From Corynebacterium sp. HMSC036D02 (lineage in GTDB: Bacteria; Actinomycetota; Actinomycetes; Mycobacteriales; Mycobacteriaceae): a stretch of 64,000 nucleotides of DNA. A program made the translations under genes and the position numbers. The notes beneath the pieces were generated by a model. The model was not told where the DNA came from. It saw nothing but the letters and a program-made list of their open reading frames with translations, and made no database searches. Shown one piece after another: positions 1,758 to 63,835 of the stretch; position 1 is the first letter of the stretch, and every line of letters starts with the position of its first letter. The stretch spans positions 62,001 to 126,000 of the forward strand of contig NZ_KV827662.1 in NCBI RefSeq assembly GCF_001836165.1, read 5' to 3'.

Positions 1758-4505
1758 TTAGCCGGCGTTGCGCAGCGCGGTGGCTAACCCGTTCATCGTG
1801 ACTTGGATGGTCTTGGATACCAGGAACTGGTCGTCGCCGCGGCGGTAGCGACGCAGCAGCTCTAACTGGACGGCGTTGAGCGGAAGCAGATAAGGATAGC
1901 GCCGCTTGAGTGAACGTGCTTGGCGCTGATTCTCGCTCACCAGATCCGCGTTACCGGTGACCTTGAGGTAGACCTCGCGGGTGCGCTCAAATTCCTCGGA
2001 TATCAGGCCAAAGATGCGGTCCGCGGTGTCCTTGTCGTCGACCAAGTTGGCGTACAGGCGCGCTAGCTGCATCTCCGCCTTGGCCATGACCTGCGCCATG
2101 TTGGCAAACACGGAGCGGAAGAAGGGCCACGTGTGGTACAGATCGCGCAGCTCCTCCCAGCGCTTCTCTTCTTCGCCAGCTCCGGTATCTGCTCCAGCAT
2201 TCTCGGAGGCTGCTACATCCGTTGTGGTATTTACCGCACTTACTGCACCTCCGGAGGCTGTCGCTCCTCCGGAGGATTGCTGCACCCACGCCGTCACCGC
2301 GCTGCCCACGCCGAACCAGCCCGGAATGTTGGTGCGGGACTGCGACCACGAAAGCACCCAGGGAATCGCCCGCAAATCCGTAATCGCGGTGGTCTGCTTG
2401 CGAGAAGTCGGGCGCGAGCCCAAGTTAAGCTCGCCAATCTCGTGCAGCGGGGTGGACTGGGTGAAGTAGGTGATGAACCCGGGGTCGTCGACAAGCTGGC
2501 GGTACGCCGTACCGCTCAAGGCCGCCAGCTCGCGCATGATCTCGTAGGCGCGCTCCGGATCCGCAATCGGCTCGGTATCCAGCAGCGACGCCTCCAACGC
2601 GCCGGAAACGAAAGCCTCCAAGTGGCGGCGCGCGGTCTCCGGAGCTCCATACTTCGCAGAAATCACCTCACCCTGCTCGGTGATGCGCACCGAACCCGAC
2701 ACCGCGCCCTTCGGCTGCGCCAAAATCGCGTCATACGTCGGACCACCGCCGCGGCCCACCGCTCCACCACGGCCATGAGCCAAACGCAGCTCCACGCCGT
2801 GGCGCGCGCAGAGCTCAACCAGGGCCAATTCGGCGTCGTACAGCGCCCAGTTTGCCTGCAGGTAACCGCCATCCTTGTTGGAATCCGAATACCCCAGCAT
2901 GACCTCCTGGATATCCCCGCGCGAGCGCAGATGTTCACGGTACACGGGCACCTGCCATAGCTTCTCCAAGATGCCGGCGCCGGCCTTCAGATCCTCGATG
3001 GTCTCAAACAGCGGCACCACGTCCACCTGGCTCAGGCCCACCTCCTTGAGCAGCACCATCGGCTCCAGAATGTCGGAGACGGTTCCAGTCATAGAAATAA
3101 TGCAGTGCGACACCGACTCCGGCCCAAAGTCCCGCACAGCGCATGCCGCCGCACGGAAAATCCCCAGCTCCTTCGCGGTATCTTCGCTGAACTCCCGCTC
3201 GGAGCCGGGGAAGAGCAGCGGGCGATTGGTCTGCAGCTCGCGCACGAGCAGCGCGACCTTCTCCTCCTCCCCCAGCGCGCGGTAGTCCGGGGTGATGCTG
3301 GCCGCGGCGAAAATCTCGGTGAGGACGTTCTCAAAGGACTCCGAGTTCTGGCGCATATCCAGCGTCGAAAGGTGGAATCCAAACGTCGTCACCGCCGAGC
3401 GCAATCGAGCCAAGCGGTCATCGGCGATGATGTCGTCATTGAACTGGCGCAGCGAGCGGTCGATCACGTCCAGGTCCCGCTTGAGCTCTTCCGGCGACGC
3501 ATAGGCGCTTGGTGACGCCTCCCCCTCCAACCTCGCCAGCACCTTCTTCCGGATGCCGAAGATGGCCCGGCGGTAGGGTTCGTCGACGCGGGATTTTTCG
3601 TCGTTCTGGGAGGCGTCGGCAAGCGCGCCCAGTTCTTTGGAACTGGAGGAATAGCGATCCGACAGGGAGAGCTCGCGCTCCAGCTCACCGAGTTCGTCGG
3701 CGTAATACTGGAGCACCGTTGCCGCGGCCTTGCGGGTGGCATAGGTCAGGGTGCGCTCGTCGACGTACGGGTTGCCGTCATGGTCGCCGCCAATCCAGGA
3801 GCCGGGGCGGACAACGGGGGAATCAGGAAGCTGCTGGCCAAAAGTCTCGCGCATGGCGTGGCGGATGGCACGGTTGAGTGCAGGGACCTGGTCGAGCAGC
3901 GACAGCTTGTAGTAGCGCAGGCCGACGTCAATCTCGTCTTCGAGGGTGGGGCGGGCGATGCGAATCAGCGCGGTCTGCCACAGCAGCGTCATGCGCAAAT
4001 ACATTTCCTTCTCGATTGCCGCCATGTCGCCGCCGCGGTGCGCTTCCTTGAGGAGGTCTTTAATGCGGGTCTGAGTATCGAAAACAGTGCGGCGGCGGGT
4101 TTCGGTGGGGTGCGCGGTGAGAACGGGGGCGACGTGCGCGCCGCGGATGACGGAGGAGGCGTCGGTTGGCGTGACGCCTTCTTCTTTGAGCTTGGCGAAT
4201 GTTTTCCGCAGGGAGACGGGCGCCTCAACGGACTCGTCATCCAGATCCTCTACCAGGTTGGCGATGAGCGCGAAATAGCTGAACGCACGGGCCACGAGGT
4301 TGACCTTGGTGATGTCGAGATCGCGGAAAATGGCGACGAGGTCCTCCGGCTTGGCATCGCCGTGTGCGATGTCAAAGGCCATGCGGCGGGTCGATTCGAC
4401 GAGCTCGAAGACGCCCTCGCCTTCCTGCTGCGCGATGACCCGGCCGAGCACCCGGCCGAGGAAGCGGATATCTTCGCGGACTTGTTCAGGGGCGGGTGTG
4501 CTCAC
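1758..4505 (-). CDS. ppc: Phosphoenolpyruvate carboxylase
   Basis: PEP carboxylase makes oxaloacetate from PEP and bicarbonate, the main anaplerotic reaction of corynebacteria. The 915-residue length is normal for the family. The catalytic-His motif AHPTETRRRT is at residues 131-140, a GYSDSNKDGG motif and the Gly-rich HGRGGAVGRGGG loop are further on, and the C-terminus ends TALRNAG as expected. The start is a GTG with GAAAGG about 10 nt upstream. An unusual Ser/Gly/Ala/Thr-rich stretch of about 32 residues (about 741-775) interrupts a region that is continuous in C. glutamicum, just before the conserved HTWPFF segment. The gene is followed by pdxT in the same direction but 108 nt separate it from its upstream neighbour. 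Confidence 0.97.
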   Translation of the reverse strand: MSTPAPEQVREDIRFLGRVLGRVIAQQEGEGVFELVESTRRMAFDIAHGDAKPEDLVAIFRDLDITKVNLVARAFSYFALIANLVEDLDDESVEAPVSLRKTFAKLKEEGVTPTDASSVIRGAHVAPVLTAHPTETRRRTVFDTQTRIKDLLKEAHRGGDMAAIEKEMYLRMTLLWQTALIRIARPTLEDEIDVGLRYYKLSLLDQVPALNRAIRHAMRETFGQQLPDSPVVRPGSWIGGDHDGNPYVDERTLTYATRKAAATVLQYYADELGELERELSLSDRYSSSSKELGALADASQNDEKSRVDEPYRRAIFGIRKKVLARLEGEASPSAYASPEELKRDLDVIDRSLRQFNDDIIADDRLARLRSAVTTFGFHLSTLDMRQNSESFENVLTEIFAAASITPDYRALGEEEKVALLVRELQTNRPLLFPGSEREFSEDTAKELGIFRAAACAVRDFGPESVSHCIISMTGTVSDILEPMVLLKEVGLSQVDVVPLFETIEDLKAGAGILEKLWQVPVYREHLRSRGDIQEVMLGYSDSNKDGGYLQANWALYDAELALVELCARHGVELRLAHGRGGAVGRGGGPTYDAILAQPKGAVSGSVRITEQGEVISAKYGAPETARRHLEAFVSGALEASLLDTEPIADPERAYEIMRELAALSGTAYRQLVDDPGFITYFTQSTPLHEIGELNLGSRPTSRKQTTAITDLRAIPWVLSWSQSRTNIPGWFGVGSAVTAWVQQSSGGATASGGAVSAVNTTTDVAASENAGADTGAGEEEKRWEELRDLYHTWPFFRSVFANMAQVMAKAEMQLARLYANLVDDKDTADRIFGLISEEFERTREVYLKVTGNADLVSENQRQARSLKRRYPYLLPLNAVQLELLRRYRRGDDQFLVSKTIQVTMNGLATALRNAG

Positions 4506-4613
4506 GACGAAGTGCCTTTCTGGGCGTGATGTGTTCAGCTAGCACATCTCAATGTAGCCCAGAGCACTATAGAGCGATAGTTATTTGGGAAAAGAGCTCA
4601 CGTGCAGAATGTG

Positions 4614-5411
4614 TTAATGGACAAAGTTAGCGAGCCACGCGGCGTGGAGGCGCGAGTCGCCGTTTTCTTCCGGGTGGAAGCTCAACGCCGTCACATAACC
4701 TTGGCGCACGCCCACAATTACCTCGTGGCCTGCGGAGGGATGAGTTAGCTCCCCGTCATGTTCGGCGCCATCTTTGCACGCCGCGCTATCTTCGCCAGCC
4801 GCGCCACCAGTCACAGTGTCGGGCGCAGGGGCGGGCACGGTGGCGATGACCTCGACGCCCTCGCCCACGCGGGTAACGATGGGCGCGCGGATGAAGCTCG
4901 CCTCAATGTCTAGCGTGATACTTCCGGGCCCTTCGCCATTAGTCTCGGTGTCCCGGGACTCGGTGCGCCGTGGCCCAACTTCTGAGGTCTCTACATCGGG
5001 CCACTGGCCTTGCATCGCGACGGGAACGATGCGCTCCTCGGAGAAGCGTTGGTTGCCGAAGGCGTTGCGGCGCACGGTGACGTCGATAAGCCCCAGCGTC
5101 TGCTGGCCCGGCGCGGGGTTTTCCAGCTCGCGGGCGCTGTAAATGAGCCCCGCGCAGGTGGCGAGGACCGGCAGCCCACCCTCGACGGCGCGGCGCAGCG
5201 GCTCCGCAACGCCGAAGGAGCGCGCCAGCTTATCGATGGCGCTCGACTCGCCGCCGGGCAGAATGATTCCGTCCAGCCCGTCGAGGTCCTTAGGCAGACG
5301 CACCCGGCGCGTTTCGGCGCCGAGGCTCTCCAGCACAGCGATATGCTCTTCCACTCCGCCCTGCAGCGCGAGCACTCCGACGAGTGGCCGCGCCGTGTCC
5401 GCTGCCACCAT
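4614..5411 (-). CDS. pdxT: Pyridoxal 5'-phosphate synthase, glutaminase subunit
   Basis: PdxT hydrolyses glutamine and channels ammonia to PdxS. The class-I glutaminase features are visible: the LPGGESSAI oxyanion loop, the nucleophile Cys in ATCAGLIY and the His/Glu pair in SFHPEENGD. I start at the ATG at 5411 because AAGGGA lies 4 nt upstream; a longer ATG-initiated frame has no support. At 265 residues it is much longer than the usual 190-200. Two low-complexity acidic/Ala/Gly insertions account for this, one of about 30 residues before SFIRAPIV and one of about 35 residues before IVGVRQG. Both fall in surface loops by family comparison, so activity is probably kept. It follows pdxS after 41 nt in an operon. 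Confidence 0.93.
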   Translation of the reverse strand: MVAADTARPLVGVLALQGGVEEHIAVLESLGAETRRVRLPKDLDGLDGIILPGGESSAIDKLARSFGVAEPLRRAVEGGLPVLATCAGLIYSARELENPAPGQQTLGLIDVTVRRNAFGNQRFSEERIVPVAMQGQWPDVETSEVGPRRTESRDTETNGEGPGSITLDIEASFIRAPIVTRVGEGVEVIATVPAPAPDTVTGGAAGEDSAACKDGAEHDGELTHPSAGHEVIVGVRQGYVTALSFHPEENGDSRLHAAWLANFVH

Positions 5412-5452
5412 CGTTCCCTTTGCGCGTTCTATGCTCAGTGCTCGCACAGGTC

Positions 5453-6355: not shown

Positions 6356-6379
6356 GGCTCACATAGTGGCGCAGAAAAT

Positions 6380-6422: not shown

Positions 6423-6424
6423 CT

Positions 6425-6430: not shown

Positions 6431-6436
6431 GGGGCC

Positions 6437-7738
6437 GTGTCTTTCCGCCTCGACCCATCTGATACGCGCGCGCTGCCGGTGCAGATCGCCGAAGCCCTCC
6501 GCACCCAAGTCGCGGCGGGCATTCTACTGCCCGGCGAGCAGGTTCCGTCGACGCGATCACTCGCCCGCGATTTGGGCATTTCCCGAGGCAGCGTGGTTAC
6601 CGCCTACGAGCAACTGACCGCCGAGGGCTACCTCACCGCGGCGGTTGGATCGGGCACCGTCATCAACCCGCACCTGCCCCACGGGCGCGCCCCGCAGCCT
6701 CATCCTGCTCCACGGCCCACCCCTGCCCCACCGCGCGTGGAGTTGACCCCCGGTTTGCCCGATACGGCCGGAATCATCACCCCCGAATGGAGGGCGGCGT
6801 GGCGCAAGGCCGCGGTGGATCCTTCCGGCGATCTCCCCCGCGAGGTGGCCGCGCACCTGCGCCACATGCGCGGGCTGACGGTCGATCCGGCCTACGTCGT
6901 CATCACCGCTGGCGCCCGCGACGGGCTGTCGGTGCTGCTGCGCGCGCTAGGCGGCCATTTGCGCGTGGGCGTGGAATCCCCCGGCTACCCCAGCCTGCGC
7001 CGCATCCCCCAGGCCTTGGGGCACACGCTTGTCGACGTCCCCACCGACGCCCACGGCGTCACCGTCCCCACCGCTGACCTCGACGTTCTCATCGTCACCC
7101 CCTCCCACCAGCACCCCTATGGCGGTTCGCTGCCGGCTGCCCGGCGCGCGGAGCTCGTCGAGTGGGCGCGCGGCAACGACGTGCTCATCATCGAGGATGA
7201 TTTCGATTCCGAGCTGCGCTACGTCGGCCAGCCCTTGCCCGCGCTCACCGCGCTCGCCCCAGAACACACGGTGTTGCTGGGCACGTTTTCTTCGGTGATT
7301 TCGCCGTCGATTGCCTGCGGCTATCTGGTTGTGCCGCCGAACCTGCGCGCGGGCGTGGACCGCGTGCGGGAGGTCTTCGGCCAGCCCGTCGGCGCTATTC
7401 CCCAGGCGGCGCTAGCGAACTACCTAGCCAGCGGGGCGCTGCGGCGGCATACCGGGCGGATGCGCCGCGCCTACAAGCGCCGCCGCGACCTCGTCCAAGC
7501 CGCGCTGGAAAACACCCCCGCCACTCTCCTGCCCATCCACGGCGGGCTCCACGCGGTGTTGTTGTGTGAGGAGGGCGTCGTCCAGCGCGCGGCCGATCTG
7601 GGCCTCACGCTGACCCCGCTGCGCGATTATTGGGGCGGCGCGCCCGCCGAGGAAGGCGTGGTCTTGGGCTTTGGGCATTTGAGCGACGTCGAACTCGCCG
7701 CCGCGCTGGAGCTGATCAAACAGGCTTTAGCGGACTGA
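6437..7738 (+). CDS. pdxR: MocR-type GntR/aminotransferase regulator of PLP synthesis
   Basis: This 433-residue protein has an N-terminal GntR winged helix (RSLARDLGISRGSVVTAYEQL, residues about 37-57) fused to a fold-type-I aminotransferase domain (TPSHQHPYGGSLPAARR, IIEDDFDSELRY, then a Ser-rich stretch where the PLP lysine normally sits). PdxR homologues sense PLP and activate pdxST while repressing themselves. The divergent pdxST and the inverted repeat between them support that role. A GTG start at a leaderless promoter is used. In place of the usual lysine motif I read GTFSSVISPSIACGYLV; a catalytic lysine there is not evident, so PLP may bind without a Schiff base, or another lysine serves. 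Confidence 0.9.
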   Translation: MSFRLDPSDTRALPVQIAEALRTQVAAGILLPGEQVPSTRSLARDLGISRGSVVTAYEQLTAEGYLTAAVGSGTVINPHLPHGRAPQPHPAPRPTPAPPRVELTPGLPDTAGIITPEWRAAWRKAAVDPSGDLPREVAAHLRHMRGLTVDPAYVVITAGARDGLSVLLRALGGHLRVGVESPGYPSLRRIPQALGHTLVDVPTDAHGVTVPTADLDVLIVTPSHQHPYGGSLPAARRAELVEWARGNDVLIIEDDFDSELRYVGQPLPALTALAPEHTVLLGTFSSVISPSIACGYLVVPPNLRAGVDRVREVFGQPVGAIPQAALANYLASGALRRHTGRMRRAYKRRRDLVQAALENTPATLLPIHGGLHAVLLCEEGVVQRAADLGLTLTPLRDYWGGAPAEEGVVLGFGHLSDVELAAALELIKQALAD

Positions 7739-8374: not shown

Positions 8375-8978
8375 CATCCCTCCTTCCGAGAATCGCTTTT
8401 AGCTTCTTAACGCCGTCGCGCACGCGCGTCTTCGCCGTACCCAGAGGTACTCCCGTTGATTCTGCCAGCTCAGCATGCGTCAAGACATTGAGAAAAGCGA
8501 GCGCCACCGCGGTGGAATGCGGCTCCCCGATCTCGTCGATAGCCCGGCGCAGGAGGTGTGCTTCCACGTTCCCCAGAGCTTCCTCTTCGAGGGGCTCCGA
8601 GTAGGTGGCCTGGGTCAGCAGCGCGTCGCGGTCATCACGGTGCACTGCGGCAACGTGGCTGCGCAGCTTATCGACGGCCCTCCCATGCGCCAACCTACCC
8701 ACCCACGACCGCGCATTTCCCCGCTGCGGATCAAATTTCGCGGCGGAGGTCCAGACCTCAACGAAGACGTCTTGAGCAACTTCCTCTGCTAAGGCGGGAT
8801 TGCGCAGAACGCTCAGGCACACGCTGTACACGGTGGGTGCGAGGGCGTCGTATAGCGCGCTGAAGGCATGCTTGTCTGCCGCAGCGGTCTGAACGAGCAG
8901 GTGGTTCAGCCGCGCATGTTCATCAGGTGACATCGCAGACACGGGTGTAGAGCTTACCTCCAGCAACGGGGCGAACAT
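8367..8978 (-). CDS. sigK: ECF RNA polymerase sigma factor, SigK-like
   Basis: A 203-residue ECF sigma factor. Region 2 (AFSALYDALAPTVYSVCLSVLRNPALAEEVAQDVFVEVW split into shorter helices) recognises the -10, and region 4 (AELAESTGVPLGTAKTRVRDGVKKL) the -35. The assignment to SigK rests on the adjacent RskA-type anti-sigma factor, on dipZ next door (as in the mycobacterial SigK regulon) and on two promoters here of the CCAATC-N17-CCGAAY form. The start at 8978 lies 7 nt after the small lipoprotein gene; an in-frame ATG at 8933 is possible. The gene should be autoregulated through the promoter at 9182-9210. Confidence 0.88.
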   Translation of the reverse strand: MFAPLLEVSSTPVSAMSPDEHARLNHLLVQTAAADKHAFSALYDALAPTVYSVCLSVLRNPALAEEVAQDVFVEVWTSAAKFDPQRGNARSWVGRLAHGRAVDKLRSHVAAVHRDDRDALLTQATYSEPLEEEALGNVEAHLLRRAIDEIGEPHSTAVALAFLNVLTHAELAESTGVPLGTAKTRVRDGVKKLKAILGRRDDE

Positions 8979-9293: not shown

Positions 9294-10874
9294 ATGCTAT
9301 CAACGCTATTCATCGGGTTTACCGGTGGCCTTATCACGGGCATCTCGCCCTGCATCTTGCCGGTCTTGCCGCTGATCCTCGCCGTTAGCGGCGGCTCACG
9401 GTGGCGGCCATGGCAGGTCGTAGGCGGACTCGTCACCAGTTTCAGCCTCGTCACGCTGTTTGCGACAACGCTGCTCAATTCCCTAGGACTGCCCGCCGAC
9501 ATCCTGTGGAAGGTGGGAATCGCGCTGCTCGTTCTCGTGGGCCTGGGAATGTTGTTCCCTCGCCTGCAGGAAGCCCTCGAGTGGCCTTTCCAGAAGCTCC
9601 CGAAAGCTGGCGGCTTGCAAACCAGGGCCCGCGACAAGGGCGGTTTCGTCGTTGGCCTAGCCATGGGTGTTGTCTTCGTTCCCTGCGCGGGCCCGGTACT
9701 GGCCGCAATCTCAGTGGCGGGTGCCACCGGAACTGTCGACGCCCACATCCTCGCTCTCTGTCTCTCCTTCGCCCTCGGCGTGGCGATCCCGCTGCTGGCT
9801 TTCGCCTTAGGCGGCAACGAGGTGGGCAAACGCGTCGATGCTTTCCGCTCCCACCAGCGCGGGGTGCGCATCACCGCGGGAATTGTGGTGATCGCTATGG
9901 CTGGTGCGATATCCCTCGGCGCGCCCGCCTGGCTGCAGCAAAAACTCCCCAGTATCAACGCCGACGCCACGCCCGTTGAACAAGCCGCCCGCACAGCGGA
10001 AGGAACCCCAGTACCCGAGTTTGCGGGGCTGACCGGATGGTTCAACACGGATGCGCCCGTCGACCCGCGCACCTCCGGCAAGGTCACGCTCATCGATTTT
10101 TGGGCCTACGCCTGCATCAACTGCCAGCGCAACAACACGCACCTGACCAAGCTCTATGCGCACTACAAGGACTACGGCTTCGACATCATCGGCATCCACG
10201 CACCGGAGTACGCCTTCGAGCACGAGGCCAACAATGTGCGTCGGGCGGCCCGCGAGCAGGGAATCGAGTATCCAGTGGCACAGGACAATAACTTTGCCAC
10301 CTGGAAGAACTTTGGGAATCGGTACTGGCCGGCGCACTATCTCGTCGACAAGCACGGCATGTTACGCCAATCCCACCACGGCGAGGGAGAGTACGCCGAG
10401 ACCGAGCGCCTCATCCGCGAGCTTCTCCTCGAGCGCGACCCCTCCATCGAGCTGCCTGAGCCAATTGAGGCCGCCGATCTGAACAGCGCGCCGCGCTCGC
10501 CGGAGACCTACCTCGGTACCGCACGCGCACAGTATTTCACCAACCTCGATTACCGCAACGGCACGCACCAGTTCACCACGAGCGAGCCTCCATTAGGCCA
10601 GTATTCGCTGGGCGGTACGTGGACTTTGGCTGACCAGCCCATCACCGCCGGACCTAACGCGCGCCTGCGCCTGAACTACCGTGCCGCCTGGGTGCAGCTC
10701 GTGACATCAGGGCGCGGAACGGTTCGCGTACACCGCACGGATGGTTCGGTTGACGCCTTCGACATCACCCACGACGGCACGGTGGATCTCATCCGCGACC
10801 CCGACAACCACACCGAAACCATCGAGCTGGAGGTAAGCGAAGGACTCTCGCTGTATTCCTTTACTTTTGGCTAG
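9294..10874 (+). CDS. dipZ: DipZ-type thiol-disulfide membrane protein
   Basis: A 526-residue fusion. The N-terminal CcdA-like domain has several membrane segments and the conserved SPCILPVLPL (Cys20) and VPCAGPVLA (Cys131) motifs. An extracytoplasmic thioredoxin-like domain follows with CINC (Cys274, Cys277), and a C-terminal β-rich domain (about 390-526) is like that of mycobacterial DipZ. It should carry electrons from cytoplasmic thioredoxin across the membrane to oxidised exported proteins. ATG at 9294 is preceded by GAAGGA at 7 nt; a longer upstream frame would run through the promoter. It is divergent from sigK, and dipZ is a known SigK target in Mycobacterium tuberculosis. Confidence 0.9.
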   Translation: MLSTLFIGFTGGLITGISPCILPVLPLILAVSGGSRWRPWQVVGGLVTSFSLVTLFATTLLNSLGLPADILWKVGIALLVLVGLGMLFPRLQEALEWPFQKLPKAGGLQTRARDKGGFVVGLAMGVVFVPCAGPVLAAISVAGATGTVDAHILALCLSFALGVAIPLLAFALGGNEVGKRVDAFRSHQRGVRITAGIVVIAMAGAISLGAPAWLQQKLPSINADATPVEQAARTAEGTPVPEFAGLTGWFNTDAPVDPRTSGKVTLIDFWAYACINCQRNNTHLTKLYAHYKDYGFDIIGIHAPEYAFEHEANNVRRAAREQGIEYPVAQDNNFATWKNFGNRYWPAHYLVDKHGMLRQSHHGEGEYAETERLIRELLLERDPSIELPEPIEAADLNSAPRSPETYLGTARAQYFTNLDYRNGTHQFTTSEPPLGQYSLGGTWTLADQPITAGPNARLRLNYRAAWVQLVTSGRGTVRVHRTDGSVDAFDITHDGTVDLIRDPDNHTETIELEVSEGLSLYSFTFG

Positions 10875-10884: not shown

Positions 10885-11487
10885 ATGAAGATTTCGCTGC
10901 ATGGACAATCCGCCGTAGCCGTCGAGGCTCCCCAGGGGCGCATCGTCATCGATCCCGGCCCCCTTTCAGACCTCAGTTGCCTGGACAGCGCCGAAGCGGT
11001 GCTACTCACACACGCGCACGGTGACCACCTCGACGTCGACTCCGTGCGCGCGAGCGGCCTGCCCGTGTGGGGAACGCGCGAGGCCGTCGACGCCATCGGC
11101 TCCGGCACCGTCGTGCATGCAGGAGAGACGTTTGCGGTTCTGGGCCTTGAGATTCAGGTTCTGGGTGGCCTCCACGAGGAAATCCATCCCACCATTCCGC
11201 GCCCGGAGAACCTCGGTTATATCTTTAATGGCGTGCTCCACCCGGGCGACCAGTGGTGCCTCCCTGAGGGACGCACGGTAGATGTCCTCCTACTCCCCAT
11301 CGCCGGCCCGTGGGTGCGCGGGGCGGATGCCGCGGATTATGCCATGCGCATCGGCGCGCGCGTGACGGTGCCCATCCATGACGCCGTGCTTTCCGACGCC
11401 GGCAAGCAAATCACCGACGGCATGCTCCAACGCGCCGGCGTGACCGGCTACCAGCGCCTGCAGGTCGGAGAAAGCATCGACGCCTAA
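10885..11487 (+). CDS. MBL-fold metallo-hydrolase, UlaG-like
   Basis: A 200-residue metallo-β-lactamase-fold protein with the metal motif THAHGDHLD near residue 44 and downstream His/Asp ligands in GVLHPGDQ and VPIHD. The family includes UlaG-like lactonases; the substrate is unknown. The ATG at 10885 follows dipZ by only 10 nt. TAGCGT, which begins with the dipZ stop codon, sits 7 nt before the ATG, so the gene may also have its own leaderless promoter. Confidence 0.82.
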   Translation: MKISLHGQSAVAVEAPQGRIVIDPGPLSDLSCLDSAEAVLLTHAHGDHLDVDSVRASGLPVWGTREAVDAIGSGTVVHAGETFAVLGLEIQVLGGLHEEIHPTIPRPENLGYIFNGVLHPGDQWCLPEGRTVDVLLLPIAGPWVRGADAADYAMRIGARVTVPIHDAVLSDAGKQITDGMLQRAGVTGYQRLQVGESIDA

Positions 11488-45996: not shown

Positions 45997-47526
<1,530 letters not shown>

Positions 47527-53000: not shown

Positions 53001-54629
<1,629 letters not shown>

Positions 54630-55069: not shown

Positions 55070-56344
55070 TCAACGTTGTGGGCCGCTAACCCGTTCGCCC
55101 TCCGCGAACGACGCGACTCGGGTGTGTACAAAGCCGGCCAACGCCAGCTTGACGACGCCCAGGGCAATAAACATTGCGCCGAATATTACGGCGAAGGACG
55201 GCCACCACAGCTCCTCCAGGATTGTCCGACCGAGTGCCTCTTGTGGGGTAAGGAGGCGGTGGAGTGGGAGGAGCGTCGCCAAACACAGCGCCCAGACCAC
55301 GCCGGCCGCAGTCAGGGTGAGGCACGCCGCCTCCCCCACTTGCACGCGCGCCCAGGCCGAGGGGGCGGCGCCCGCCAAGGTGAGGCCACGAATATCGGCC
55401 GCGATGCGCCCGTGCATAAGCAGCGAGGTAAGCACGGCGCCCACGATGCTAGGTGCGAAGACTGGACCCAAAAGGGCGAGGAAGGCCTGCCACGAGGACA
55501 GGGTGCCTCCGGCGCCTGCGTCGTTCCCAAAGCGCAGGCCCGAGCCGACGGCGACGATAAAGCCGCCGACGAGCACCCACGGCACGATGTGCGGGGTGGA
55601 AAAGCTTCGGCGCACGCGCACATTAGCCCCAGCGATGCCGGCCGCGCGGGTCCATTGATCCAGGACGGGCATAAGCCAGGGCAAAAAGAGCGCGACAAGG
55701 ATGACCAAGCCCATCTCGGCCGAGAGGAGGTCGCCGGGATCATCGATGTGTAGGCATCCATAGACCGTACTGCCGACAGCAACGGACGCGAGCAGGAATT
55801 TCACCATGAGCCACGCCGGGTGTGCGGTGGCGTGCGGCCGAAAGACTCGGCGCAGTGGAGGCAGCGCTCCGACTAGGGCCGCGGACATGCAGACAACTAT
55901 CGCAATACCAACGACCTGGCCTGTAATCGCAATGTCTGGCAAAGGGATGCCGTCGCTGCGCAGGGCGCGCACGCACGGCGCGAGCAGTGGACGGGCCGGC
56001 AGCACACCAAGAAATCCGGCGGCCGCGCTGACCACCGCGACTTGGCCCAGAATGAAAATCAGGATCATCCACCCAGGCATGCCCACCATGCGCCAGGAAC
56101 GGTAGACCGGCTCGCGCTCAGCGATGATAAGGCGCATCTGCGAGAGCGTCACCAGCACTACCACGCACAGTGACATGCCCAGCACTGTGCCGCCCAGAGG
56201 CCCAGCGGGGTTTTCTTCGGCTCCGGGGGAAGCGACCAGCATGGCTAGCGCTAGGGTGCACGAGGTGGAAGACACCACCAGGGTCAGCGCTACGGCCAGC
56301 CACGATAGCCAATTGGACTGTAAGTCCTTAAGCCACACCAGCAT
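55070..56344 (-). CDS. FtsX-like ABC transporter permease
   Basis: A 424-residue permease with about ten predicted helices. A TM helix at about 14-36, another pair near 55-75 and 92-116 (with the QMRLIIAEREPVYRSWRMVGMP coupling region between them), and a second FtsX-like half near 290-410 (ADIRGLTLAGAAPSAWARVQVGE) are visible. It lacks a large extracellular domain. ATG 56344 has GGAGGAGG upstream and overlaps the ATPase gene by 17 nt. Partner of the ATPase at 56328; the substrate is unknown, but the kinase/regulator neighbours suggest antimicrobial-peptide or envelope stress. Confidence 0.85.
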   Translation of the reverse strand: MLVWLKDLQSNWLSWLAVALTLVVSSTSCTLALAMLVASPGAEENPAGPLGGTVLGMSLCVVVLVTLSQMRLIIAEREPVYRSWRMVGMPGWMILIFILGQVAVVSAAAGFLGVLPARPLLAPCVRALRSDGIPLPDIAITGQVVGIAIVVCMSAALVGALPPLRRVFRPHATAHPAWLMVKFLLASVAVGSTVYGCLHIDDPGDLLSAEMGLVILVALFLPWLMPVLDQWTRAAGIAGANVRVRRSFSTPHIVPWVLVGGFIVAVGSGLRFGNDAGAGGTLSSWQAFLALLGPVFAPSIVGAVLTSLLMHGRIAADIRGLTLAGAAPSAWARVQVGEAACLTLTAAGVVWALCLATLLPLHRLLTPQEALGRTILEELWWPSFAVIFGAMFIALGVVKLALAGFVHTRVASFAEGERVSGPQR

Positions 56345-56933
56345 GGGCCACCTCCTCCAAGGAAATGACCCGGTCGGCCGCCTCGGCGGCAAGGTGCGAG
56401 TGAGTCACCATGATCACGCTGGCTCCATCGCGGGCAACGGCGTGAAGGTGGGAAAGGACGGTGGAAGCGGTGGCGTCGTCAAGCGCGCCCGTGGGCTCGT
56501 CAGCGAAGATATAGGGCGCTTGGGCCAGCAATGCCCGGGCGACAGCCACGCGTTGCTGCTGCCCACCAGAAAGCTGTGCGGGCAGGCGGCTCTCCAATCC
56601 AGCGAGACCGAGCGAATCGAAGACCTCTGCCACACGGCCGCGTGCAGGGCGCCGGCCGGAAAAGCGCGCCGTCAAGGTGGCATTGCGTTGCGCGTTGAGG
56701 GATTCCAGCAGGTTGTAGTCTTGGAATACAAATGCACGCTGCTTGCGCCCCGGCGCGTTGACTCGGCCGGAAGTGGGCTTATCGAGCCCGGATAACAGGT
56801 TCAGGAGCGTGGTTTTGCCGCTTCCCGATGGCCCCATGATGGCAACGAATTCGCCTGGGGCGATAGACACATTGACGCGATTGAGCACGGTGCGGCGGCC
56901 GTAGCGCTTACTAAGGTTTTCTGCTTTTAACAT
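56328..56933 (-). CDS. ABC transporter ATP-binding protein (LolD/MacB type)
   Basis: A 201-residue ATPase: Walker A GPSGSGKTT, Q-loop FQDYNLLESL, signature LSGGQQQR, Walker B YIFADEPTGALDD and switch His VTHSH. It energises the FtsX-like permease. ATG 56933 is chosen over a long upstream frame, which would read through the kinase promoter and a 16-bp palindrome. It is divergent from the histidine kinase, 112 nt apart. Confidence 0.92.
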   Translation of the reverse strand: MLKAENLSKRYGRRTVLNRVNVSIAPGEFVAIMGPSGSGKTTLLNLLSGLDKPTSGRVNAPGRKQRAFVFQDYNLLESLNAQRNATLTARFSGRRPARGRVAEVFDSLGLAGLESRLPAQLSGGQQQRVAVARALLAQAPYIFADEPTGALDDATASTVLSHLHAVARDGASVIMVTHSHLAAEAADRVISLEEVAHAGVA

Positions 56934-57045: not shown

Positions 57046-58176
57046 ATGCGAACCTTCAAAGCCTGTGCGTGGAGCCTCCTCCTCGGCATGCTGTGTATCC
57101 CAACCTTGGTGATTTCGGTGCTGATGCTGCCGTGGATCCCGTTGGTGGGTCGCGCCGCGGAACTTGTCGGCCGGTTGGGCGCGCAGTGGATGGGCGTGGA
57201 AATTCCACCCCGGCGCGCAGATCGATGGTTTGATTGGCAGCAGTTCTATCACCTCGTGTTGCAGTTATTGATTTCGACTGCATGCTTTACCGCGTGGACG
57301 GCCCTGGGTTTCACAGCGGGTGTGCTAGCGATAGCGCCATTCGTACCTAAGGCCGAGTTCTCCGTTGGCGAGTGGTCCACCTCCAACCGACCGCTTATTT
57401 TCTTAACCTGCTGGCTGGCTGCTCTGTTGCTTGTGTTGTTACTGGTAGGTCTCAACCGCCTCTTGGTCTCAGCGTCGGTCTCGCTGACCCGACTGGCATT
57501 GAGTCCTTCGGCCGAGGAAATGGCGGCCTCGCGTGCCACGCTTATCGATGCCTTCTCCGGCGAGCGCCGCCGCATCGAACGCGAACTGCACGATGGCCCG
57601 CAGCAGTACCTCACTGCGCTCAAGCTCAACTTGGCCGCGGCAAAACTACAAGCCCCGCCCCAGGCACAGCAGGCCTTGACTGACGCAGAACATAATGCCT
57701 CTTTGGCTCTGGCTTCATTGCGGGCGACAGTGCGTGGCATTGCGCCGCAGGTGCTTTTCGACGACGGGCTTATCCCCGCCCTCGACGAGTTACTCGCCCA
57801 TTCCGGGCTTGAGACCACACTTCGCGTAGAGGGCGCTGAGAGCTCGATAGACGAGACCACAGCACTGCTGGCCTATCATGCAGTCGCCGAGGCGCTCACA
57901 AACGCCTCTAAACACGGCGCAGCCACCGAAGCCGTGGTAACGGTCGCTTTTAGGGATATGCTGCGCCTAGAAATCGTAGATAATGGCATGGGCCCCACGG
58001 CCAAAGAGCCGGACGGTGAGAGTGCAGCTGTGGGTTCGGGCACGGGCCTCGCCGGGCTGCGTGAGCGTGCTGCTGCACTCGGCGGCACAGTAACCTTTGG
58101 TGCTGATAGCACCAATGCTACGGGTAAAGGCGGCGGCCAGCTGCTGGTCAAACTACCGCTGAAGGAGGCGGAATGA
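57046..58176 (+). CDS. Sensor histidine kinase
   Basis: A 376-residue NarL-class kinase with four predicted N-terminal helices (about 10-30, 68-100 and 118-143) and no large sensor domain, a HisKA_3 region (RRRIERELHDGPQQYLTAL, His about 181) and an ATPase domain (AVAEALTNASKHG, VDNGMGP, GTGLAGLRERAAALGG). TAGGGT is 8 nt before the ATG. It overlaps the regulator gene by four bases. A LiaS/BceS-like function linked to the divergent ABC transporter is likely. Confidence 0.9.
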   Translation: MRTFKACAWSLLLGMLCIPTLVISVLMLPWIPLVGRAAELVGRLGAQWMGVEIPPRRADRWFDWQQFYHLVLQLLISTACFTAWTALGFTAGVLAIAPFVPKAEFSVGEWSTSNRPLIFLTCWLAALLLVLLLVGLNRLLVSASVSLTRLALSPSAEEMAASRATLIDAFSGERRRIERELHDGPQQYLTALKLNLAAAKLQAPPQAQQALTDAEHNASLALASLRATVRGIAPQVLFDDGLIPALDELLAHSGLETTLRVEGAESSIDETTALLAYHAVAEALTNASKHGAATEAVVTVAFRDMLRLEIVDNGMGPTAKEPDGESAAVGSGTGLAGLRERAAALGGTVTFGADSTNATGKGGGQLLVKLPLKEAE

Positions 58177-59271: not shown

Positions 59272-59349
59272 AACGGTGTGAGCTCCTTTTGTGTGAGCCG
59301 GACGATTATCGGTCATCACACTACCGGCACCCTGGGGGTTGCGCATCCG

Positions 59350-60402
59350 CTAGCGCGCGGCGGCCACGAGCGGCACTTCCACCTCAAGCTGCGTATCGGT
59401 CCCGCATGCCAGGCCGGAGGGTTCTGCGCCTTCGTGAATGAGCTGGGCGGCCACCGCCGCGATCATCACGCCGTTGTCGGTGCACAGCTTGAAGCGCGGC
59501 ACACGCAGCTCGATTCCCGCGGATTCGCAGCGCTTCGCCGCCAAGGCGCGCAGCCGCGAATTCGCAGCCACGCCGCCGCCGAGCAGCAGCACCTTGGCGC
59601 CAGTGTCCTGGCAGGCGCGCACGGCCTTGGCGGTCAGCACATCCGCCACCGCCTCTTGGAAGGAGGCGCAGAGATCCTCAACCTGGACCGTGGTGCCCTC
59701 GCGCTCGGCCTTTTCCACGTGGCGGGCTACTGCCGTTTTGAGCCCCGAGAAGGAGAAGTTGTGGCGGTTGGGCCCGCGCAGGTCCTCGGCCTTGGACAAA
59801 CCACGCGGCAAATCGATGGTGGGCTCGCCTTGGGCGGCCAGCTTATCGATGACCGGCCCTCCCGGATACCCCAACCCCAGGAGGCGGGAGACTTTGTCGT
59901 AGGCTTCGCCGGCGGCGTCGTCAAGCGTGGTGCCCAACTCCTTCATGGGTTTGCCCACGGCTTCGACCTCGAGCAGCTGGGTGTGGCCGCCGGAGACGAG
60001 CAGCGCCACCGAGTGCGGCAGCTCCTCGCCCTCCAGGTTGGCCACCGCGACGTGCCCGCCGAGGTGGTTGACGCCGTAGAAGGGCACGCCCCACGCGGAG
60101 GCGAAGGCCTTGGCTGCCGACGCCCCGACGAGGAGCGCGCCGGCCAGTCCCGGCCCCACGGTGGCGGCCACCGCATCGGGCTTCTCGACGCCCGCCTCCT
60201 CCAACGCCGCCTTCATCACCTGCGGCATGGCTTCGAGGTGAGCGCGGGAGGCAATCTCCGGCACCACGCCGCCGAAGCGGGCGTGCTGCTCCATGGAGGA
60301 GGCGACGACGTCGGCGCGGATCTCCATGTGGCCGTTATCAGACAGCTCGATGATGCCCACGCCGGTTTCGTCGCAGGAGGACTCGATGCCGAGGATTAAC
60401 AT
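59350..60402 (-). CDS. tsaD: tRNA N6-threonylcarbamoyladenosine transferase TsaD
   Basis: A 350-residue ASKHA-fold enzyme transferring threonylcarbamoyl to A37 of ANN-decoding tRNAs. The [12 protein letters not shown] phosphate loop, metal ligands in VNHLGGHVA and the [11 protein letters not shown] motif are present. It overlaps rimI by seven bases and closes the t6A operon. It contains one sense copy of the GCTTGNCGACG repeat. Confidence 0.97.
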
Positions 60403-60911: not shown

Positions 60912-61600
60912 GATGCCGGTGTCTCCTCGTTGCCGCCGACCAAGGCGGCCGAGCGCGGCTTGGCCTTCGGCTCCACGGCATCGGGGCGGCGTAGGTAGAG
61001 CGGGACGAGCGGCTCGGGTTCAGCGGACAAGTCAGCGCAGGCAACCAAACCCTCTGCGCGCGGGGTAGCCCACTCGCTGGGAAGGTCAGCGATGTCCTCC
61101 GGCAAACGTGGAGCAATAGATTCTGGGAAAACCAGAAGCGCACTCGCTGGGCTCGCGAGTCCGGCGGCGCTCAGATCAAGGGTTTCCGGCTTCGATACGT
61201 TGGGGCCGCTACGGCGCTCGCCGTCCACATAGGTGGCCCAGTAGACCTCTTTGCGGCGAGCGTCGATAGCCACCAGCCACTCCCCCGTGCGCCCGTGCGC
61301 GATGGCGTCCAAGGTGCACACACCATGTACCGGCAGGTGAAGGGCCACTCCCAGGGCGGAAGCGGTTGCCATGCCCACGCGCAGGCCGGTGAACGGTCCG
61401 GGCCCCGTGCCGACAACGATGGCGGAGAGGTCGGCATAGGTCAGAGAGGCGTCGGCAAGCAGCTCTTCGATGGTAGGGATGAGCTGCTCGTTGTGGGCGC
61501 GCGTACCACTGATGACGCGGTCGATGCTCTCCCCGGTGTCGGTGTCAACGATGCCCGTGACCAGATCCGTGGTGGCGGTATCGAGTGCGAGAACCTTCAT
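60908..61600 (-). CDS. tsaB: tRNA t6A biosynthesis protein TsaB
   Basis: A 230-residue TsaD partner: VLALDTATTDLVTGIV, GTGPGPFTGLRVGMATA and VVAIDARRKEVYWATY. It stabilises the TsaD complex. Its ATG shares a base with the preceding stop (TAATG) and its end overlaps rimI as ATGA, so translation is coupled throughout the operon. Confidence 0.95.
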   Translation of the reverse strand: MKVLALDTATTDLVTGIVDTDTGESIDRVISGTRAHNEQLIPTIEELLADASLTYADLSAIVVGTGPGPFTGLRVGMATASALGVALHLPVHGVCTLDAIAHGRTGEWLVAIDARRKEVYWATYVDGERRSGPNVSKPETLDLSAAGLASPASALLVFPESIAPRLPEDIADLPSEWATPRAEGLVACADLSAEPEPLVPLYLRRPDAVEPKAKPRSAALVGGNEETPAS

Positions 61601-62145: not shown

Positions 62146-62242
62146 GGGGATGTGCTCCTAATAATAGGGAGTTCCGTACGGGGATATCCTACGCGACCGC
62201 CCTACCGCGGCCCTGACTGGCCCTTCCGGCACCGAAAAGGGA

Positions 62243-63835
62243 TCAAACGATCAGCAGTGCCAGGACCTGGCACATGAGGATCTTGCCGATCATCGCCGTA
62301 GGGTACACGGTGGCATAGCCGCGCTCTGCCAGCTGGGTTCCGGTCTGGGGGTTGAGGTAGGCCATGATCGCCGGGTTCGTGGTCATACCCGCGGCGATGC
62401 CCATCGACTCATCAAACTTCAGGCGCAGCACCAGCATCGATACCGCGACGATGCCGATGGCGGAAACCAGCGACAGCACAATGCCCACGCCCATGTACTT
62501 CAGGGAGGTCGGATCCGACAGCGCATCACGGAACTGGCCGCCTGCCGACGTACCCACGCCCGCCAAGAACAAGGTCAGGCCCAGCGTGGAGATTGTCTGC
62601 TTGGCGTGGAAAGGAAGCTGCCAGTTAATCGGGCCCGAGCGGCCCAGCGCACCCAGGATGAGGCCGACGACGATGGGGCCGCCGCCGAAGCCGAAGGAGA
62701 GCGTCGTGCCACCTGGCAGCGGAATCGGGATAGCGCCGAAGAGCAGACCAATGAAGAGGCCAAGAGCAAAGGGAAAGAGATCGACGTTGCCGAGTTTGGC
62801 TTCGGAGTCGCCGAGGAAACGGCGGACGTCGTCAAGCCTGCCCGGCGCGGTGATAACGCGCACGCGGTCCGAGTAATGCAGGACGGTTTCCTCGTTCGGC
62901 ACGACATCCGAGTCACCGCGGCGCACGCGCGCGATGAGGAAGCCCTCCTTGACCGTGTCCAAGTCCTTGAGCTGGTAGCCCGCAACGCGTGGGCTGGACA
63001 CGGTCAGGCGGCGGTAGACCAGGCCATCCTCCTCGTGGAGGTTGAGGTGGATCTCCTCACCGAGCTGGGAGATCGCGCTATCAAGCGCTGGTGCCGTGCC
63101 GTTGAGCAAGAGCTCCATACCCGCGCGCAGCGGCAGCTCCGGATAGGCCAGGTTGTGGTTGTGCGGATTGTTGACGTGGCGGGTAGCGATGACGCGCTCG
63201 CCAGTCACCTCCTGCAGCTCCCCTACCGTTGCGTCGAAGTCGCGAGTCAGGCGCACTGCCCGCCACTCCAGCGGCTCCGCAATCATGCCCTCGGCGCGGG
63301 CGTCCTCAACGTGGTTCACGCGCAGCATCTTCGCGCCGATGGCGGCCACCAGAATGGTTCCGATGATGCAGCCAGGGTAAGCCAAGGAATAGCCCACCAC
63401 CGGGGTGCTGTCGCCGCCCAGGGCTTCGACGACCGCTGCCATACCCGGCGTCGAGCTTAGCGAGCCCGCGAGCGTGCCGACGCTAATCGCCGGGTCCAGG
63501 TCAAACATGCGCATCGCCAGGGTTGTCAGCCCCGCGAGAAGGAAGAAGAAGACGATGACCACCATGGACATCTTCCATCCTCGCCGGCGGAAATCTTCGA
63601 AGAAGCTGCGGCCGAAGTTCAGGCCGATGACGTAGACGAAGATGGCCAGGCCAAATTGATACACGAAGGCCGGGACCACGATGTCTGGGTTGGCAGCGGA
63701 CAGTCCCAGGGCCACGAACATCGCGGCGGCGGCGCCGAGCGAGATGCCGAAGACATTGATCTTGCCCACGGCCAGTCCCACCGCCATGATCAGAAAGAGC
63801 GTCAGCAGGGGCTGTTCAGCAAGAAAAGCCAGCAC
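62243..63835 (-). CDS. AspT/SucE-type transporter
   Basis: A 530-residue antiporter-family membrane protein with two AspT/YidE halves of about five helices, each flanking a central cytoplasmic region with two RCK-C (TrkA-C) domains (residues about 195-350). FAIGGTT-like signatures (GGGPIVVGLILGALGR) fit aspartate:alanine exchangers; the C. glutamicum member exports succinate. The GTG start at 63835 lies one base after the tsaE stop. Substrate here is unproven. Confidence 0.88.
   Translation of the reverse strand: MLAFLAEQPLLTLFLIMAVGLAVGKINVFGISLGAAAAMFVALGLSAANPDIVVPAFVYQFGLAIFVYVIGLNFGRSFFEDFRRRGWKMSMVVIVFFFLLAGLTTLAMRMFDLDPAISVGTLAGSLSSTPGMAAVVEALGGDSTPVVGYSLAYPGCIIGTILVAAIGAKMLRVNHVEDARAEGMIAEPLEWRAVRLTRDFDATVGELQEVTGERVIATRHVNNPHNHNLAYPELPLRAGMELLLNGTAPALDSAISQLGEEIHLNLHEEDGLVYRRLTVSSPRVAGYQLKDLDTVKEGFLIARVRRGDSDVVPNEETVLHYSDRVRVITAPGRLDDVRRFLGDSEAKLGNVDLFPFALGLFIGLLFGAIPIPLPGGTTLSFGFGGGPIVVGLILGALGRSGPINWQLPFHAKQTISTLGLTLFLAGVGTSAGGQFRDALSDPTSLKYMGVGIVLSLVSAIGIVAVSMLVLRLKFDESMGIAAGMTTNPAIMAYLNPQTGTQLAERGYATVYPTAMIGKILMCQVLALLIV

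What the first reader, a model, noticed from the sequence alone, without database searches (positions are those of the whole stretch)
2486..62837. Highly over-represented non-palindromic 11-mer GCTTGNCGACG
I count 28 exact copies (10 fixed bases) in 64 kb, roughly one per 2.3 kb, where random sequence of this composition would give under one on both strands. They span unrelated genes. In sense copies leucine is encoded by CTT, a codon these GC-rich genes otherwise use little, and six copies run antisense to their gene and encode different peptides (VDKH, ASAS, VVK). The flanks extend to GCTTGNCGACGYC in most copies, and many one-mismatch forms exist (for example GCTTATCGACG, GCTTCTCGACG, GCCTGCCGACG). 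A purely protein-level LxDA motif does not explain this. Density and lack of symmetry resemble DNA-uptake sequences or polar architecture/translocation motifs; I know of none described for Corynebacterium.
Basis: partly seen in the sequence, partly recalled or inferred. Interest (0 to 1): 0.85.

Follow-up and report, generated by a model that had tools for sequence, protein, structure and literature searches.

The report
Genome-wide DNA uptake tag in Corynebacterium
Most Corynebacterium genomes examined carry one short DNA tag (GCTT, two free letters, then CGACG or CGATG) hundreds of times, and it is likely the signal by which these bacteria would recognise and take up DNA of their own kind, a device I found described only in two other bacterial families.

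Summary
The window holds 29 GCTTGNCGACG; the true core is GCTT-NN-CGACG (51 in the window; with its T form 1,179 in the 2.64-Mb genome, 81 for the reversed control). Protein-, codon-, codon-pair- and dinucleotide-preserving models do not explain it; copies lie sense, antisense and between genes, with no replication polarity. Of 242 genomes of the genus, 166 are rich in GACG, 14 in a second form, GCTT-NN-CGATG, 7 intermediate, 55 have neither; 149 genomes of 30 other genera of the family show no comparable excess of GACG. At the same places in orthologous genes, GACG genomes hold the C form (40 of 42 motif cells) and GATG genomes the T form (53 of 54). Trees place the window's lineage (C) inside the T group, and relatives keep relics of T. 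This is the behaviour of DNA-uptake-sequence dialects. ComEA, ComEC and a Tad pilus are present, but also in motif-free genomes, and no receptor was identified. Uptake itself is untested. Best reading: an uptake-sequence system in Gram-positive actinobacteria, of which my literature searches found no report.

The parts
2486..2496 (-). core motif GCTTGTCGACG, sense in gene 1758-4505
3614..3624 (-). core motif GCTTGCCGACG, sense
5081..5091 (-). core motif GCTTATCGACG, sense
7027..7037 (+). core motif GCTTGTCGACG, sense
8666..8676 (+). core motif GCTTATCGACG, antisense
10343..10353 (-). core motif GCTTGTCGACG, antisense
11388..11398 (+). core motif GCTTTCCGACG, sense
12552..12562 (-). core motif GCTTCTCGACG, antisense
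13036..13046 (+). core motif GCTTGCCGACG, sense
16662..16672 (+). core motif GCTTCACGACG, sense
16712..16722 (-). core motif GCTTGGCGACG, antisense
18755..18765 (-). core motif GCTTCTCGACG, antisense
19109..19119 (+). core motif GCTTGTCGACG, sense
21068..21078 (-). core motif GCTTCACGACG, sense
21797..21807 (-). core motif GCTTATCGACG, sense
26011..26021 (+). core motif GCTTGACGACG, antisense
26314..26324 (-). core motif GCTTGCCGACG, sense
28812..28822 (+). core motif GCTTTACGACG, sense
29390..29400 (+). core motif GCTTCTCGACG, sense
29537..29547 (-). core motif GCTTCTCGACG, antisense
30262..30272 (+). core motif GCTTGTCGACG, sense; GATG form at the aligned place in T-dialect G001 and G102
30922..30932 (+). 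core motif GCTTTTCGACG, antisense
31123..31133 (-). core motif GCTTCTCGACG, sense
33725..33735 (-). core motif GCTTGTCGACG, sense
34151..34161 (+). core motif GCTTGCCGACG, antisense (gene call weak here)
35820..35830 (-). core motif GCTTCTCGACG, sense
36386..36396 (-). core motif GCTTTTCGACG, sense
36810..36820 (+). core motif GCTTAGCGACG, antisense
36911..36921 (-). core motif GCTTGACGACG, sense
38889..38899 (+). core motif GCTTGTCGACG, sense
39393..39403 (-). core motif GCTTATCGACG, antisense
40113..40123 (+). core motif GCTTGCCGACG, sense
41412..41422 (-). core motif GCTTGCCGACG in the gene at 41194-42762; C form in 6 C-dialect and T form in 7 T-dialect genomes at the aligned place
43209..43219 (-). 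core motif GCTTCTCGACG, sense
44095..44105 (+). core motif GCTTCGCGACG, sense
45213..45223 (-). core motif GCTTGCCGACG, sense
46767..46777 (-). core motif GCTTGTCGACG, sense
47103..47113 (+). core motif GCTTGTCGACG, antisense
48789..48799 (+). core motif GCTTTTCGACG, antisense; at the aligned place T form in G001, G144, G102 but C form in T-dialect G024 (the one exception)
50737..50747 (-). core motif GCTTGTCGACG, sense
51901..51911 (-). core motif GCTTGCCGACG, sense
52312..52322 (+). core motif GCTTGTCGACG, antisense, in the overlap of two gene calls
53972..53982 (-). core motif GCTTGACGACG, sense
54545..54555 (-). core motif GCTTGCCGACG, sense
55147..55157 (+). core motif GCTTGACGACG, antisense
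56474..56484 (-). core motif GCTTGACGACG, sense
57753..57763 (+). core motif GCTTTTCGACG, sense
59916..59926 (-). core motif GCTTGACGACG, sense; C form in 5 C-dialect and T form in 3 T-dialect genomes at the aligned place
60180..60190 (+). core motif GCTTCTCGACG, antisense
61450..61460 (-). core motif GCTTGCCGACG, sense
62827..62837 (-). core motif GCTTGACGACG, sense
59841..59851 (+). GCTTATCGATG, one of six T-form copies in the window; T form also in sister G015, T-dialect G107 and motif-free G043 at the aligned place, C form in C-dialect G022 and G100: likely a relic of the former dialect

Best explanation
GCTT-NN-CGACG is a short, non-palindromic motif that occurs, with its T form, 1,179 times over both strands of this Corynebacterium genome, and it is likely a DNA uptake sequence: a mark that would let the cell's DNA-uptake machinery prefer DNA of its own kind. 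SHOWN: the motif is a feature of the DNA, not of protein (sense, antisense and intergenic copies; codon-pair models fail); it has no replication polarity; in the same family its C form was in comparable excess only in this genus; it exists in two genome-wide dialects, GACG and GATG, that differ together at the same places in orthologous genes; in both trees built, C genomes, this one among them, lie inside the T group. INFERRED: T arose from C and several lineages went back to C. PREDICTED and untested: a surface receptor, likely a minor pilin of the Tad pilus or another exposed part of the ComEA/ComEC route, binds the motif on incoming double-stranded DNA; ComEC passes one strand; recombination then replaces resident alleles with motif-bearing ones. 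Over time this biased conversion would spread and clean the motif, and a change in the receptor's taste would rewrite the tenth base across the genome, leaving relics of the old dialect.
For: Counts and controls. Protein-, codon- and codon-pair-preserving controls: 135 sense and 53 antisense copies in 405 coding sequences against means of 7.9 and 12.9 (maxima 14 and 22 in 30 runs); second species, 331 coding sequences, 149 and 67 against 6.7 and 9.9. Genus survey of 242 genomes: 166 GACG, 14 GATG, 7 intermediate, 55 neither. Of 149 genomes in 30 other genera of the family none exceeds about 2.8 times its control for GCTTGNCGACG; the T form was counted, together with C, in only two of them (1.5 and 1.8 times control). 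GATG found without bias as the top gapped word in two genomes. Dialect at orthologous places: 19 shared columns of 70; C genomes 40 C and 2 T, T genomes 53 T and 1 C, while CGATG outside the motif makes up 34 to 68% of CGAYG. Nesting: concatenated tree and ComEC tree; 18 C genomes keep 50 to 102 GCTTGNCGATG copies against a median of 24. Absence from acquired DNA: the two longest motif-free gaps in 464 kb hold a type I-G CRISPR-Cas locus and a copper-type island. Competence route present: ComEC in 241 of 242 genomes, TadA in 237 of 242, ComEA-grade match in 58 of 60; own genes by family models. Precedent: in Micrococcus luteus, also an actinobacterium, tadA and comEA are competence genes (PMC6667448, passages); Neisseriaceae show dialects, one genome having two at once (PMC3630211, passages); density here, about 250 to 750 per Mb in the 16 rich genomes, is of the order given for the two USS types (PMC12616744, passages).
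Against: No uptake data exist here, and my searches found no paper showing natural transformation of a Corynebacterium. ComEA, ComEC and Tad genes also occur in most motif-free genomes tested, so the machinery does not discriminate. No residue of the proteins compared tracks the dialect without exception. G129 has 330 GATG copies but no ComEA-grade match. Four motif-rich genomes lack a TadA match (G167, G168, G198, G204; 190 to 480 contigs) and four lack T2SSF (G168, G171, G198, G189), perhaps from assembly gaps. Inverted pairs as terminators, common in the known systems, are not in excess. In the own genome copies are rarer between genes than within (18 of 206 in 16.6% of the DNA). The absence from islands rests on two gaps whose lengths alone are not significant.
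Confidence: 0.75

Rival explanations
1. A recombination signal of the Chi kind: the motif would regulate the cell's own double-strand-break enzyme rather than uptake, and would spread because DNA carrying it recombines better.
For: Genome-wide motif with lineage-specific forms; biased conversion could also explain dialects.
Against: No orientation relative to replication: 34,023 against 34,214 overall and 39 plus to 38 minus right of the parS-like cluster, intergenic 18 leading and 23 lagging. Escherichia coli Chi is strongly oriented (recalled). Eleven bases is long for a Chi (recalled).
Confidence: 0.12
2. A binding site of a nucleoid or chromosome-architecture protein, spread over the chromosome.
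For: Spread over the chromosome with near-random gaps (coefficient of variation 0.95); present within genes.
Against: Hundreds of sites would have to change their tenth base together more than once without a drive; near misses at several positions are depleted rather than graded (last base 2 against 22 expected), unlike the graded sites of most such proteins (recalled); missing from 55 genomes of the same genus, and in those of the six searched that could be judged no substitute word of like strength appeared.
Confidence: 0.07
3. A restriction-modification or epigenetic recognition motif.
For: Non-palindromic two-part sequence; a D12-type adenine methyltransferase gene lies near comEC in the own genome.
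Against: Recognition sites tend to be avoided, not in 15- to 50-fold excess (recalled); the 2-base spacer does not fit type I sites (recalled); a methyltransferase and partner of the same look also sit beside comEC in motif-free G043 (by eye).
Confidence: 0.03
4. A by-product of protein sequence, codon-pair use or mutation bias.
For: 131 of 135 sense copies in the own sample fall in one frame, encoding Leu-x-Asp.
Against: Synonymous and codon-pair models give means of 5 to 13 copies where 135 and 53 are seen; antisense and intergenic copies; base difference C to T also at antisense places, where it alters the codon's residue.
Confidence: 0.01

Closest known systems
DNA uptake sequence (DUS) of Neisseriaceae, read by the minor pilin ComP
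   Same: Short non-palindromic motif, many hundred copies, genes and spacers; dialects between related species; a genome with two dialects at once; some relatives without any (PMC3630211, passages).
   Different: Unrelated sequence; Gram-positive actinobacteria with a Tad pilus in place of a type IVa pilus; receptor unknown; no excess of inverted pairs; here the dialect seems to have gone forward and back; uptake bias not tested.
Uptake signal sequence (USS) of Pasteurellaceae (Hin and Apl types)
   Same: Similar density and length, two dialects (PMC12616744, passages).
   Different: Unrelated sequence; no marked A/T-rich flanks here (those of USS recalled); different cell envelope.
Tad-pilus and ComEA/ComEC transformation of Micrococcus luteus
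   Same: Same class of machinery in an actinobacterium (PMC6667448, passages).
   Different: The passages read describe no uptake motif; I did not look for one in that genome.
HIP1 of cyanobacteria
   Same: Very frequent short genomic motif, in genes as well (recalled).
   Different: HIP1 is a palindrome tied to methylation (recalled); this motif is not a palindrome.
Chi and KOPS
   Same: Non-palindromic, frequent (recalled).
   Different: Both are oriented along the replichores (recalled); this motif is not.

Membership tests
DNA uptake sequence kind (DUS/USS) | Short non-palindromic word in large excess over composition, codon and codon-pair models | tested here: met
DNA uptake sequence kind (DUS/USS) | Both orientations alike, no replication polarity | tested here: met
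DNA uptake sequence kind (DUS/USS) | Related species share it or carry genome-wide dialects | tested here: met
DNA uptake sequence kind (DUS/USS) | Species possesses a DNA-uptake route | tested here: met
   ComEC, ComEA, Tad genes; but also in motif-free genomes
DNA uptake sequence kind (DUS/USS) | Cells take up motif-bearing DNA preferentially (the defining property) | not testable with these tools
   needs an uptake assay
DNA uptake sequence kind (DUS/USS) | A cognate surface receptor that changes with the dialect | tested here: inconclusive
   ComEA and Tad pilins compared; no residue without exceptions
DNA uptake sequence kind (DUS/USS) | Inverted pairs used as terminators (usual companion, not a defining feature) | tested here: not met
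   10 pairs closer than 60 bases in 400 kb of G005, about the 10 that 261 random sites would give; 4 in 464 kb of own, about 5 expected (and arithmetic)
Chi | Orientation bias along the replichore | tested here: not met
KOPS / FtsK-orienting motif | Strong orientation towards dif | tested here: not met
HIP1-type palindrome | Palindromic core | tested here: not met
   sequence itself
Type I restriction site | Two specific parts with a 5 to 8 base spacer (recalled) | tested here: not met
   2-base spacer

The most novel reading that the evidence does not exclude
Corynebacterium possesses the first DNA-uptake-sequence system outside Neisseriaceae and Pasteurellaceae and the first in a Gram-positive lineage: self-DNA is recognised through GCTT-NN-CGAYG, likely by a Tad-pilus component, and the species speak two dialects whose tenth base has been rewritten genome-wide from C to T and back again, leaving fossil words of the old dialect in the genome.
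Probability: 0.7. Interest if true: 0.93.

Novelty: new variant of a known kind. Interest (0 to 1): 0.88.

Why it matters
If true, most species of a genus with many members living on humans and animals exchange genes by a self-recognising form of natural transformation that my searches did not find described. It would add a third, independent origin of uptake sequences, in a cell envelope where none is known to me, give the Tad pilus and ComEA/ComEC of these actinobacteria a defined role, explain gene flow and barriers between Corynebacterium species (same or different dialect), and offer a route to transform harmless strains that are hard to engineer. The forward-and-back dialect change, with relic sites, makes the old question of how a recogniser and about a thousand sites co-evolve directly testable. 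Even if the recogniser is not an uptake receptor, a genus-wide motif that switches one base in concert is a strong and unexplained pattern.

Tried and rejected
Protein-level origin: rejected by synonymous and codon-pair models. Polar motifs (Chi, KOPS): rejected by orientation counts; my first look at G005 took the origin to be at base 1, which the GC skew contradicts, so I redid it by skew sign. Inverted-pair terminators: no excess.

Receptor search, all negative or weak. (1) ComEA: a residue in the helix-hairpin-helix looked perfectly tied to dialect (A in 17 of 17 C genomes, V in 13 of 13 T or weak-T genomes with a pattern match), but wider samples broke it: K in C-type G044, then, by first match per genome, V in 10 and K in 18 of 44 C-type genomes (some of the V rows lie in the T group). 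Rejected. (2) TadE residue 31: G in 11 of 12 C genomes and A in 9 of 9 T genomes, but G035 (C) has A and the place lies in the hydrophobic helix; kept only as a weak lead. (3) TadA type: 33 genomes with a weaker TadA match (E 1e-105 to 1e-126) are all motif-free; but the cut is mine and narrow (motif-bearing G088, G126, G137, G202 have 1e-129 to 1e-131), I left out motif-rich G014, G075 (two matches each) and G095 as split genes, the model was built without this group, and it is likely one clade.

Presence of ComEC, ComEA or T2SSF as a predictor: not discriminating. Dialect search in six motif-free genomes by gapped words: nothing comparable in G008, G011, G043, G132; G007's list was filled by its CRISPR array and, without that stretch, by a repeat of period 9; G206 has CTCGNCGAG words 12 times over independence but only about 2 times over a codon-pair model, so no clear motif, though not fully excluded. 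The single scan of named genomes by TadA returned mostly other taxa, so species names are mostly missing. Motif content of phages and plasmids of the genus was not tested. A spaced-motif survey of 569 genomes (PMC5217627; passages and outline seen) names only CRISPR pairs for its Corynebacterium genomes in those passages; its supplementary table was not read.
Full report
The window holds 29 exact copies of GCTTGNCGACG, one more than reported, where dinucleotide shuffles give 0.37 on average. The enrichment is genome-wide: 305 forward and 293 reverse copies in 2.64 Mb, against 5 and 7 for the same pattern read backwards. The genome belongs to Corynebacterium: its ComEA is 94 to 96% identical to proteins that a source names as Corynebacterium aurimucosum.

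The true core is wider. In 464 kb of the own genome (400 kb in stretches plus the window) the nine bases GCTT--CGACG are fixed and the two between them are free, with G and T favoured: 206 copies against 7.1 from a third-order model; in 400 kb of a second species, G005, 261 against 7.8, with A and C favoured at the sixth base. Whole-genome counts of GCTTNNCGAYG are 1,179 (own) and 1,614 (G005) against 81 and 94 for the reversed control; over the 16 rich genomes given to they run from 694 to 1,786, and the two weak ones, G032 and G185, have 291 and 284 against 83 and 74. Ten motif-free genomes in that call have 64 to 172 against 34 to 98. Single mismatches at the fixed bases stay near or below expectation, the last base most sharply (2 against 22.1 from a codon-pair model in own, 8 against 18.6 in G005); the third base is the exception (29 against 18.7, and 71 against 21.4). 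Part of that expectation is inflated by the motif's own codon pairs.

The motif is a feature of the DNA. With a simple gene finder of my own, the 206 copies are 135 sense, 52 antisense, 18 intergenic and 1 at a gene edge; in G005 149, 67, 41 and 4. Most sense copies lie in one frame, Leu-x-Asp. A model that keeps each protein and the codon use gives 5.4 sense and 11.4 antisense copies where 135 and 53 are seen; keeping codon pairs as well gives 7.9 and 12.9, never more than 14 and 22 in 30 runs. Leucine is CTT in 134 of 187 cases in this context against 11% overall. One flank base, C at offset 12, belongs to the motif in this species (79% of 53 antisense, 88% of 17 intergenic copies) but hardly in G005 (46% and 39%).

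It has no polarity. Over the 166 GACG-rich genomes forward and reverse copies of GCTTGNCGACG number 34,023 and 34,214. In G005, judged by local GC skew, intergenic copies are 18 leading and 23 lagging; the sense excess on the leading strand (105 to 46) mirrors an antisense deficit (24 to 45), that is, gene orientation. Six parS-like palindromes mark the origin side on own contig C2 (the reading as parS is recalled); left of them copies are 9 plus and 6 minus, right of them 39 and 38.

The survey of 242 genomes of the genus gives two dialects. By the rule used, 166 are rich in GCTTGNCGACG (109 to 916 copies, median 385, control median 16), 14 in GCTTGNCGATG (307 to 754), 7 are intermediate and 55 have neither (median 21 against a control of 19). 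A search without prior pattern also put GCTTNNCGATG first in the two GATG genomes tried (54 against 3.6 and 32 against 2.4). In six motif-free genomes it gave nothing comparable in four; G007 was masked by repeats, and G206 shows CTCGNCGAG words at about twice a codon-pair model. In 149 genomes of 30 other genera of the same family GCTTGNCGACG is at most about 2.8 times its control; the T form was not counted there except in two genomes. A named Corynebacterium metagenome genome has 18 copies of GCTTNNCGACG in 21 kb; single loci of Rhodococcus, Mycolicibacterium, Nocardia, Dietzia and a 7-kb locus named C. urealyticum have none.

The dialects differ in place. I aligned 29 groups of orthologous genes of window positions 30 to 63 kb with up to 19 other genomes and found 70 columns where at least one genome has a motif. 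In the 19 columns shared by genomes of both dialects, the seven C genomes hold 40 C-form and 2 T-form copies (48 cells without a copy, 3 gaps), the eleven T genomes, one of them weak, 53 T-form and 1 C-form (67 without, 1 gap); over all 70 columns 70 and 6, 96 and 1. Outside the motif CGATG makes up 34 to 68% of CGAYG, with overlap between the groups, and so does Asp codon use. An antisense place shows the difference too, where it is not synonymous.

The dialect has a history. In a tree of six proteins of 20 genomes, concatenated, own and G015 join G195 (support 0.89), then G129 (0.74), then G097 (1.00); the first three are C, the last two T, and the next branches are again T or motif-free (one of the six proteins was found in only 10 genomes). 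In a ComEC tree of 76 of 78 genomes given, rooted on motif-free G007, C is spread over most of the tree, T appears in one region, and C genomes occur inside that region in three places (own/G015/G195/G052; G150/G211; G035/G086/G106); motif-free genomes are scattered and also grouped. This is one gene, without support values shown. Eighteen C genomes keep 50 to 102 GCTTGNCGATG copies where the median C genome has 24; nine of them are in the ComEC tree, and eight of these (not G184) lie in the T region: they look like relics. One such copy is in the window (59841-59851).

Acquired DNA seems to lack it. The two longest motif-free gaps in the 464 kb, 15.2 and 13.1 kb, hold a copper-type island, named from reading its proteins, and a type I-G CRISPR-Cas locus confirmed by family models. 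With a mean gap of 2.2 kb such lengths alone are not significant, and shorter gaps were not examined.

Machinery. ComEC is found in 241 of 242 genomes, TadA in 237 of 242, T2SSF in 233 of 242, ComEA-grade matches in 58 of 60. The own genome has ComEA with HhH domains (its SLBB match is just under the cut-off), ComEC with a Competence domain, and a Tad locus with Ssd, TadA, TadC, a TadB-like frame, Flp-like DUF4244, a TadE (under the model's cut-off), an Rv3654c-like protein and the neighbouring helicase. All 20 Tad loci compared, seven from motif-free genomes, match the seven own proteins searched (TadB was not searched). So the machinery permits the uptake reading but does not prove it. Signs of decay go with weak or absent motifs in single cases: G007 (none) has a stop in ComEA, G185 (intermediate) lacks ComEA and ComEC matches at 90% completeness, G124 (38 copies against a control of 2, classed as none) has a stop in ComEC; G129 (330 GATG, no ComEA-grade match) goes the other way.

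Reading. A recogniser that changes taste and then has its sites rewritten across the genome, with relics, over a whole genus, and sites that are nearly all-or-nothing in sequence and unoriented, is what DNA uptake sequences do in Neisseriaceae (PMC3630211, abstract and passages). An actinobacterium using TadA and ComEA for transformation is known (PMC6667448, passages), and Tad-dependent DNA uptake is reported for Liberibacter (PMC8513845, search listing only). I therefore hold uptake the best explanation at 0.75; the receptor is unknown, and ComEA and TadE residues that first looked promising did not hold. Searches for a report of this motif or of uptake sequences in Corynebacterium or Gram-positive bacteria found none in the listings; the library lacks most subscription journals and all preprints.

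Noticed in passing
L004/L005, own contig C2 about 32.8-41 kb: Type I-G CRISPR-Cas genes (Cas3g, Cas5/6g, Cas7g, Cas8g by family models; a Cas4-Cas1-like fusion by eye) in a stretch of low GC without the motif.
   Followed up: partly
L005 6635-15206 and L006 2310-9523: Six exact GTTTCACGTGAAAC palindromes, the form of actinobacterial parS (recalled), marking the origin side of contig C2.
   Followed up: partly
L203 2809-4786; L220 209-2387: A D12-class adenine methyltransferase and a partner gene with DUF6996/DUF6997 lie a few genes from comEA/comEC in the own genome (Pfam) and look alike in motif-free G043 (by eye); a methylase beside competence genes recalls the Dpn system of pneumococcus (recalled).
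   Followed up: no
window 34793, 37899, 49100: Three exact copies of the palindrome GCGCAATTGCGC in the window, 0.61 expected with one mismatch allowed; not explained.
   Followed up: no
L258 (G025), L260 (G055): Two adjacent ComEA-like HhH proteins, apparently a tandem duplication.
   Followed up: no
L203 6748-7980: The own ComEC is called at 410 residues, shorter than that of G043 (568), with the Competence domain and no other Pfam match.
   Followed up: no
L044 (G007 C1:220001-240000): A long CRISPR array (52 copies of a repeat word) in motif-free G007.
   Followed up: no
genus survey: Thirty-three genomes with a more distant TadA, by a cut of my own, are all without the motif; likely one deep clade, with longer open frames around ComEA in those listed.
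   Followed up: partly
L023-L042 (G005): G005 shows an excess of motif copies with a changed third base (71 against 21 expected in genes; mostly G), perhaps a minor variant of the word.
   Followed up: no
L076, L088-L092 (G206): The near-palindrome CTCGNCGAGG is about twice as frequent as a codon-pair model predicts, equally on both strands of genes (28 and 30 against 16 and 15), in a motif-free genome.
   Followed up: partly
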